Source: an uncultured Eisenbergiella sp. (GTDB lineage: Bacteria > Bacillota > Clostridia > Lachnospirales > Lachnospiraceae). From it: a DNA stretch of 64,000 nt. Positions within the stretch are counted from its first letter, which is position 1, and every line of letters begins with the position of its first letter. The stretch spans positions 62,001 through 126,000 of the forward strand of contig CANQVD010000003.1 in assembly GCA_947627215.1 (NCBI GenBank). Reading direction: 5' to 3'. The notes under the pieces are model-generated. The model ran no database searches. It worked only from the letters and a program-made list of their open reading frames with translations, and was not told where the DNA came from. The translations under genes were made by a program, and so were the position numbers. Below, piece by piece: positions 13,853-15,590 of the stretch.

Positions 13853-15238
13853 TTACATTGTAGTCAGCATGCATTGCGCATGATCATACCAGAACTTGTA
13901 TCCGCAGCTGCGCTGCAGGATCCGGCAGTCACTGTATTTTGCAGTGATCTTAGCACCATTGGTGCAGCGGACATCAAACCATCCGGTCGTGCGCACCATG
14001 ACCCTGCCGGTATGGATGCCTGCATATTTTCCGGACCTGACGTCTGCGCGTACAATATCGCCGGTCATGAACCCGAATCTCCGCTTCGGCCCGCGCTTGA
14101 ACTTTGTAATGATGATGCCGCAGCTGTTCGTCAGCCCCCTGAACCGGGAGCCCCGGCCCATTGCTTCCGCGTGCAGCACACAGCCGCATGTCCGGTCACG
14201 GTATCCTCCCTCCGGCACTGTCCCTACGCACAGGGCGTCGTAATGGTGATCCTTCGGCAGGCCAAGCCGCGTGCGGTTATACTTTGTCCGCCCGCCGCTG
14301 GAGCACTCCACCTGTCCGAAGATCCCGAACAGGGCACGCTCCACATATCGCCGGCAGGCATTGGCCCAGGCGCTGTACCTCTCCCCGACGAAGGGCGTAT
14401 GACCTTCCAGGATCCGGGTGATATGTTTCACCCTGGCGTCATTGAGGCTGGTCCTGCTGTTCTTCTTTAGGGCTTCCAGATACTCAGGGAGCGTGCGGTT
14501 CCCTTTGTCACGGTTGCATGAGCGGCATGCCAGCGATGCATTCTTTACGCTGCTGCTCCCGCCGCGGGATCTCGGCACCATATGTTCCCATTCCAGGACT
14601 GCATCCCCGGACTCGCCGCCGCAGTACTGGCAGGTGTGGCCGAATCTCTCCAGAAGGTACTCCCGGATTTCGGTTCCAAACAGTGTGCCGTGCTGATATT
14701 CCTCCCCGGAGATGTCCGGGTCAGCCAGGAGCTGCTGATCGAAGCGGACTGCCTCAAAGCTGCACTCTGTGATGTTGATGTACCGCTTCAGTTTCCGCGT
14801 CCAGTTGATGATGTTGTCACCGACCGATCTGACGCTCGGCGGCAGCCAGCCTTCCTTACGGGCACAATCGAACCTGCCGCCCTTACTGAATCTGCACCGG
14901 CGGTAGCGGGTCTCCCGCTGCCTGCGGCTGCGCCTGGTCATCCGTCTGGTGTCCAACGCTTTCTTAACCTTCTGTCCGCGGTGGTGGATCTGCATGTACA
15001 TCATCACCTCATCCGTATCGATGCGGACGACGGCGATCCCGGTATGTGCCGAACCCGGGTCGATCTTGATCCGGTAACCCGGCCGATCCGGAAGCTCGCG
15101 CACATCCCGGTCTTTTACAATGACGGCAGCCGGGTATTTGCGGTAAAGGACTGCGCGTTTTTTGTCCATAAGGATGCGCGCCCTCCGCTCGGTCATGAAC
15201 CCAAGCGGCTTTTTGTGCTTGTCTAAAGCAATGACCAT
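13853..15238 (-). CDS. iscB: IscB-family RNA-guided RuvC/HNH nuclease
   Basis: PLMP-like N-terminus (KPLGFMTERRARILMDKKRAVLYRKYPAAVIV), RuvC-I IDPGSAHTGIAVV, RuvC-II FEAVRFD, HNH CQYCGG...LEWEHMVPRSRGGSSSVKNASLACRSCNRDKGN, RuvC-III HHYDALCVG. Confidence 0.92.
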   Translation of the reverse strand: MVIALDKHKKPLGFMTERRARILMDKKRAVLYRKYPAAVIVKDRDVRELPDRPGYRIKIDPGSAHTGIAVVRIDTDEVMMYMQIHHRGQKVKKALDTRRMTRRSRRQRETRYRRCRFSKGGRFDCARKEGWLPPSVRSVGDNIINWTRKLKRYINITECSFEAVRFDQQLLADPDISGEEYQHGTLFGTEIREYLLERFGHTCQYCGGESGDAVLEWEHMVPRSRGGSSSVKNASLACRSCNRDKGNRTLPEYLEALKKNSRTSLNDARVKHITRILEGHTPFVGERYSAWANACRRYVERALFGIFGQVECSSGGRTKYNRTRLGLPKDHHYDALCVGTVPEGGYRDRTCGCVLHAEAMGRGSRFRGLTNSCGIIITKFKRGPKRRFGFMTGDIVRADVRSGKYAGIHTGRVMVRTTGWFDVRCTNGAKITAKYSDCRILQRSCGYKFWYDHAQCMLTTM

Positions 15239-15575
15239 GCTGTTTCCTCCTGTAATAGCGGTCAGTTACGCCCTTGTCATGCGGTATGCGCCCCGCTCGT
15301 GGGCAGGGACCGCGTCTCCTCGCACAGTTATCCGGTTTCCCGGGATGGATGGGCGTCCAGGCACAGGCTGCCCTGTACCCGGACGTTGGATCTTCCACAT
15401 GCGTTTCTGCCAATGCAGGAGACCTGCACGGCGTGGGTACTGCACTGCGGCCCTCCGGCGGCCTACCCTTAACAGTACCCCACGGCAAATGTATTGGAGA
15501 AGCGTACAAGGCCGTGATCGCGCACTAACATTGATGTGCTGCTCAACTTCCTATTGAAACCTGCATGAAAATAGA
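15239..15575 (-). ncRNA. candidate IscB omegaRNA
   Basis: ~350-nt ORF-poor GC-rich region directly 5' of iscB; long stem pairing 15432-15441 with 15471-15483 plus other hairpins; contains TGGCAGAAAC, also present in the 17178-17360 RNA candidate. Confidence 0.75.
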
Positions 15576-15590
15576 CCCGAAGGTTTTACT

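What the first reader, a model, noticed from the sequence alone, without database searches (positions are those of the whole stretch)
13853..15590. Apparently intact IscB with omegaRNA inside a TasA-like gene cluster
All hallmark motifs are present: PLMP-like N-terminus, RuvC-I Asp, RuvC-II Glu, HNH His, RuvC-III HxxD. A structured 5' omegaRNA candidate precedes the gene and no TnpA transposase gene is visible nearby. The scaffold likely begins near minus-strand GTTTCAATAGGAAGTTGAGCAGC (~15560). The guide would then be the preceding ~16 nt, which overlap a hairpin (15563-15596) at the 3' end of the upstream TasA-like gene. The nuclease may be a hitchhiker or may target the empty site or a competing allele of this cluster.
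Basis: partly seen in the sequence, partly recalled or inferred. Interest (0 to 1): 0.75.

Follow-up and report, generated by a model that had tools for sequence, protein, structure and literature searches.

The report
Single IscB transposon with mis-called guide

Summary
ORF 13853-15238(-) is an intact IscB (NCBIfam equivalog NF040563, 305 bits against a cut-off of 175) preceded by a long structured omegaRNA. Relatives with 39-68% identity show that the element runs from 15624 to 13779 (1,846 bp): a left end starting GTCAAC, and a right-end hairpin followed by an MTGR flank (M = A/C, R = A/G). The guide is 15640-15625, GGAAGAGAGGTGCGAG, i.e. the last codons and likely Shine-Dalgarno region of the upstream TasA-like gene. 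The 3' motif is ATGA, the start codon of the downstream BsaA-like gene. Joining the flanks gives an ATGA stop/start overlap, as seen in sister clusters without IscB. The omegaRNA escapes Rfam's HEARO model, but a covariance model built from HEARO hits finds its core (E 8e-6). The element is single-copy, with no TnpA within ~63 kb. TnpB-type elements on the contig have similar end hairpins. Most likely an ordinary ISC-type IscB element, mobilised in trans, whose nuclease cuts the empty site or empty plasmids. Guided cutting and the trans transposase are inferred. New member of a known kind.

The parts
13853..15238 (-). IscB nuclease gene, 461 aa, intact (PLGF-type N-terminus, RuvC-I D60, Arg-rich bridge helix, RuvC-II E162, HNH H219, RuvC-III HHYD 331-334, C-terminal TAM-interacting-type domain)
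   Evidence: fold match to OgeuIscB 8csz E 7e-21
13779..15624 (-). Whole IscB element (ISC type, IS200/IS605-like ends), 1,846 bp; left end GTCAAC at 15624, right end at 13779
   Evidence: Left and right ends defined by relatives L036, L037, L041, L081 and by copy pairs L080/L082 and L037/L073
15625..15640 (-). Inferred guide, GGAAGAGAGGTGCGAG (16 nt; guide length taken from characterised IscB), last codons of the upstream TasA-like gene and likely Shine-Dalgarno of the downstream gene
   Evidence: Immediately 5' of the left end; the only exact copy in the genome is this one
   Evidence: P1 recurs with sequence changes in L036, L037, L041, L081 and in the HEARO loci
15426..15521 (-). Conserved omegaRNA core (hairpin with GCUUCUCC loop plus GUUAAG stem) homologous to Rfam HEARO RF02033
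   Evidence: Covariance model R1 20.8 bits, E 8e-6; five two-sided compensated pair changes against L080/L082
13787..13826 (-). Right-end hairpin GGCAATTCCTCATGGCTATAAATAGCCGTGTCTCCTTGCC
   Evidence: single copy in own genome; homologous right ends in L036, L035/L082, L042, L041
13775..13778 (-). Candidate TAM ATGA, which is also the start codon of the downstream gene
   Evidence: The flank after the right end is MTGR in all 9 elements of the clade
13233..13778 (-). Downstream BsaA/TasA-like SipW-dependent fibre protein, 181 aa; start codon touches the element, its likely Shine-Dalgarno now lies 1.85 kb away
   Evidence: TIGR04090 73 bits against a cut-off of 60
15591..16937 (-). Upstream TasA-like gene; last 10 codons plus stop (STTRLLNNRA*) are element-derived; predicted original end ...SGRRKRGAR*
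17178..17372 (+). About 195-bp remnant of a TnpB-type IS200/IS605 element (two ends, no gene) between two TasA-like genes
   Evidence: Ends 92-95% identical to the TnpB elements at C3:57000 and C3:146148

Best explanation
The locus is one intact insertion of an IscB-encoding transposon (ISC type, IS200/IS605-like ends) in a TasA/BsaA-like operon on a conjugative plasmid or integrative element. It carries no transposase and was probably moved by a TnpA acting in trans (inferred). It inserted without target duplication between GGAAGAGAGGTGCGAG and ATGAGAAAAGC, separating the downstream gene's likely Shine-Dalgarno from its start codon (supported by alignment of ends and restored reading frames; no empty site was found). 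Read-through transcription would make a transcript whose 5' part is flank-derived guide plus scaffold; IscB binds it and cuts DNA matching the guide next to a 3' MTGR motif (here ATGA) (inferred from characterised IscB). The insertion removes that motif from next to the guide, so the occupied site is immune, while the empty site after excision, or an element-free plasmid copy, is cut. This favours retention and spread of the element.
For: IscB equivalog and fold; no broken motif. Structured, HEARO-homologous 5' RNA with compensated pairs. Ends shared with relatives at unrelated sites; copy pairs in one genome stay near-identical up to CTGA or CTGAAG at the right end and then diverge. Flank after the right end MTGR in 9 of 9. 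Joined flanks restore an ATGA stop/start overlap with GAGGTG in front; 4-base overlaps occur in the IscB-free sister clusters L084 and L085. Single copy; clade rare in its family (1 of 397), as for a recent arrival. VirD4, VirB4 and ParA in the window.
Against: No empty site was found: homologous clusters in the genus and family are at most 36% identical, and the predicted junction is absent from viral contigs. No transcript or cleavage data. The mobilising TnpA was not identified; the nearest (C3:140011) has different end hairpins. The omegaRNA is longer than canonical (386 against about 240 nt from left end to gene start) and Rfam's model misses it.
Confidence: 0.85

Rival explanations
1. 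One reading: the scaffold starts at about 15560 and the guide is the ~16 nt before it, part of the 15563-15596 hairpin.
For: GTTTCAATAGGAAGTTGAGC contains the GTTGAGC block that relatives share.
Against: That block is the 3' strand of P1; all relatives with both flanks have its 5' partner GTCAAC upstream as the element's first bases. Characterised HEARO starts at the equivalent GUCA. A guide inside a hairpin of the element would be fixed and would not match the insertion site.
Confidence: 0.04
2. A domesticated or regulatory IscB: kept because its guide represses or edits the BsaA/TasA operon, as TnpB-derived regulators do, rather than as a mobile element.
For: The guide covers the ribosome-binding region and its motif is the start codon; single copy; no local TnpA.
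Against: Both transposon ends and all nuclease motifs are intact. The sister clusters lack IscB. The insertion itself moves the start codon away from the guide, so the resident operon is not a target. Relatives sit at unrelated genes.
Confidence: 0.05
3. An immobile relic: motifs look intact but it no longer moves and the nuclease or omegaRNA is inactive.
For: Single copy, no matching TnpA found in the genome, element rare in the family.
Against: Open frame without stops, core RNA pairs maintained by compensated changes, both ends present.
Confidence: 0.1

Closest known systems
IscB / HEARO elements (ISC transposons; NCBIfam NF040563, Rfam RF02033)
   Same: Protein family, domain order, 5' omegaRNA directly upstream of the gene, left end starting GUCA and forming P1, conserved GCUUC-loop and GUUAA stems, right-end hairpin, conserved motif at the right-end flank.
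   Different: omegaRNA about 384 nt with extra hairpins, missed by the Rfam model; PLGF instead of PLMP; right-end flank MTGR. About 35% of IscB 5' regions also lack a Rfam hit (PMC9755519), so this is within known diversity.
OgeuIscB, OrufIscB, TbaIscB (solved or engineered IscB)
   Same: Fold (8csz best match, E 7e-21) and RuvC/HNH order. OrufIscB takes NTAAA with NWRRN tolerance (PMC13180657); ATGA fits NWRR.
   Different: Distant in sequence (phmmer 49-94 bits).
TnpB elements of IS200/IS605
   Same: Guide taken from the flank, end hairpins; TnpB elements on this very contig have near-identical hairpin cores. TnpB acts as a plasmid gene drive (PMC11870625).
   Different: Different nuclease; omegaRNA at the opposite end of the gene (established knowledge of TnpB).

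Membership tests
IscB nuclease | IscB equivalog profile above cut-off | tested here: met
   NF040563 305 bits against 175
IscB nuclease | Split RuvC with intact acidic residues, HNH His, Arg-rich bridge helix | tested here: met
IscB nuclease | PLMP-type N-terminal domain | tested here: met
   Domain present (PF14239 covers residues 2-184), motif reads PLGF
IscB nuclease | Fold of solved IscB | tested here: met
   Best Foldseek matches are IscB structures, probability 1.00; model mean pLDDT 70, so domain level only
omegaRNA / HEARO RNA | Match to Rfam RF02033 at gathering score | tested here: not met
   No match
omegaRNA / HEARO RNA | Homologous conserved core structure upstream of iscB | tested here: met
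   R1 20.8 bits, E 8e-6 in the window; 23-35 bits in L080, L081, L036, L041
ISC / IS200-IS605-like mobile element | Hairpin ends, guide adjacent to left end, conserved motif adjacent to right end | tested here: met
ISC / IS200-IS605-like mobile element | Empty site identical to the joined flanks | tested here: inconclusive
   Reading frames fit, but no empty-site sequence found
ISC / IS200-IS605-like mobile element | Y1 transposase TnpA in cis | tested here: not met
   None in the window; most IscB lack it too (PMC9755519)
IscB nuclease | RNA-guided DNA cleavage | not testable with these tools
   needs biochemistry

The most novel reading that the evidence does not exclude
This rare gut-Clostridia IscB clade, with long omegaRNAs and an MTGR motif that reads as a start or stop codon, uses its guide against the ribosome-binding site and start codon of element-free plasmid copies, and thereby acts as a plasmid competition or gene-drive device tied to a diversified surface-adhesin operon.
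Probability: 0.08. Interest if true: 0.55.

Novelty: new member of a known kind. Interest (0 to 1): 0.3.

Why it matters
It gives a clean, testable guide, scaffold and 3'-motif prediction for an uncharacterised, rare IscB clade of gut Clostridia whose omegaRNA the standard model misses. It also corrects a plausible-looking guide assignment that would have made any cleavage test fail. IscB and TnpB-type elements with similar end hairpins on one contig make shared mobilisation in trans testable.

Tried and rejected
Rfam gathering and permissive scans of the window for HEARO: no hit (also own genome). Further copies or second targets in the genome: none exact; the 2-mismatch sites that were read do not carry a clear MTGR neighbour, except none checked beyond those seven. 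Empty site: predicted junction in viral contigs, no hit; relatives' flank proteins in viral contigs, nothing useful; homologous clusters too diverged. More clade members in 397 and 401 genomes: none. TnpA at C3:140011 as mobiliser: its end hairpin (CCCACTATTTTAATAGTGGG) differs. TnpB-type remnant in plasmids: no match; in phages one TnpA+TnpB element with a related end. The Nature 2023 paper on guide RNAs and selfish spread of transposon nucleases is not held.

Full report
What is there. The ORF at 13853-15238 on the minus strand encodes 461 aa with PF14239 RRXRR (1e-48) and HNH domains. It matches the NCBIfam equivalog 'RNA-guided endonuclease IscB' at 305 bits against a cut-off of 175. Seven aligned relatives keep D60, E162, H219, HH331-332 and D334. 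The AlphaFold model is of middling confidence (mean pLDDT 70), but its best structural matches are OgeuIscB and other IscB complexes. The genome holds one copy; a second hit (C31, 28% identity) is a different protein of the same broad family.

Where the element begins and ends. The genome collection gave relatives at 39-67% identity; more copies came from the relatives' genomes. In L036, L037, L041 and L081 the region 5' of the gene begins GTCAAC, contains a hairpin such as CUCGGCUACAAGUAGCCGAG, and returns to GUUGAG. The more distant loci, which Rfam recognises as HEARO, begin at the equivalent GUCA. In the window GTCAAC lies at 15624-15619 and its partner GTTGA at 15547-15543. At the other end a right-end hairpin (13787-13826) resembles those of the relatives. 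Two copies in G446 stay near-identical up to CCTGA and then diverge; two in G448 stay near-identical up to CTGAAG. The first flanking bases in nine elements are CTGA (six), CTGG (one) and ATGA (two, one of them the window).

Is MTGR flank or element? In the window and in L081 it is the start codon of the downstream gene: ATGAGAAAAGCA and ATGAAAAAGATT, the second with AAGGAG in front once the flanks are joined. In L036 joining restores an in-frame TGA stop. So it belongs to the target, on the side where an IscB target-adjacent motif lies. Joined flanks in the window read GGAAGAGAGGTGCGAG|ATGAGAAAAGC: the upstream TasA-like protein would end SGRRKRGAR* with its TGA overlapping the next gene's ATG, and GAGGTG four bases ahead as Shine-Dalgarno. 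Sister clusters without IscB show the same kind of 4-base gene overlap (L084 4422-4425, L085 4227-4230). No true empty site was found, so the boundary at single-base precision remains an inference.

The RNA. The 386 nt from the left end to the start codon fold at -157 kcal/mol, z -3.9. Rfam's HEARO model does not hit it at any threshold tried. I built a covariance model from 11 HEARO hits. With filters off it finds 15426-15521 in a 3.3-kb stretch at 20.8 bits, E 8e-6, and the matching places in L080, L081, L036 and L041 at 23-35 bits; L037 gave no convincing hit (E-values are rough by the tool's own statement). Against L080/L082 the two core stems show five two-sided compensated pair changes; L080 and L082 are near copies of each other, so this counts as one comparison. 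The 5' RNA is thus a long, diverged omegaRNA. This is not exceptional: about a third of IscB 5' regions lack a Rfam hit (PMC9755519).

How it most likely works. Shown: intact nuclease, RNA homology, ends, guide position and flanking motif. Inferred from established IscB biology: the flank-derived guide and scaffold load IscB, which cuts matching DNA next to the motif. The inserted site has GTCA instead of ATGA next to the guide, so it is spared; the excised site or an element-free plasmid copy is cut. TnpB was shown to work as such a gene drive on plasmids (PMC11870625), and the window carries VirD4, VirB4, ParA and an actin-like protein, so plasmid competition is plausible. The only minus-strand promoter-like sites in 13.6-18.4 kb lie upstream of 18.1 kb, and their number does not exceed chance, so the RNA is perhaps made by read-through of the TasA-like operon. 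Likely cost: the downstream BsaA-like gene is cut off from its Shine-Dalgarno.

Mobilisation. No TnpA lies in the window; five TnpA matches (two of them pieces of one gene) exist in the genome. A ~195-bp remnant at 17178-17372 and two TnpB elements at C3:57000 and C3:146148 share ends (the C3:57000 copy lacks one end), and one hairpin contains GGCTATAAATAGCC, identical in the IscB right end; a phage record has a TnpA+TnpB element with a related end. A shared TnpA in trans is a reasonable but untested inference.

Frequency. In 397 family genomes only this one has a close relative; of 401 genomes drawn from the family of L036, only its own. The clade is rare and scattered among uncultured Clostridia, mostly gut assemblies by record titles.

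Verdict. A new, intact, rare member of a known kind, with the guide corrected. Interest moderate to low.

Noticed in passing
window 2824-7714: A complete diversity-generating retroelement: RT 4487-5656(-), RT-2 RNA 5707-5925(-), template repeat about 5935-6069, and two variable repeats (6925-7060 at the C-terminus of a 2,098-aa SpaA-repeat surface protein, and 2824-2959 in a 97%-identical duplicate of about 790 bp). In the alignments shown, differences from the template fall mostly at template T on the + strand (A on the coding strand)..
   Followed up: partly
window 17178-17372: A TnpB-type IS200/IS605 remnant (two ends, no gene) between two TasA-like genes, on the strand opposite to the IscB; near-identical ends in TnpB elements at C3:57000 and C3:146148.
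   Followed up: yes
window 19978-52466: Conjugation and partition genes (VirD4 32168-35440, VirB4-like 37768-40653, T2SSE 22908-24761, ParA 51651-52466, actin-like 49795-50760): the contig looks like a conjugative plasmid or integrative element carrying the adhesin operon.
   Followed up: partly
L081 2293-4232 (IscB element in another genome): A 47%-identical IscB element also inserted between a Shine-Dalgarno (AAGGAG) and a start codon ATGAAAA, the same placement as in the window.
   Followed up: partly
L044 / L106 (C3:140011-140367): IS605-type TnpA+TnpB element on the same contig with a different end hairpin.
   Followed up: partly
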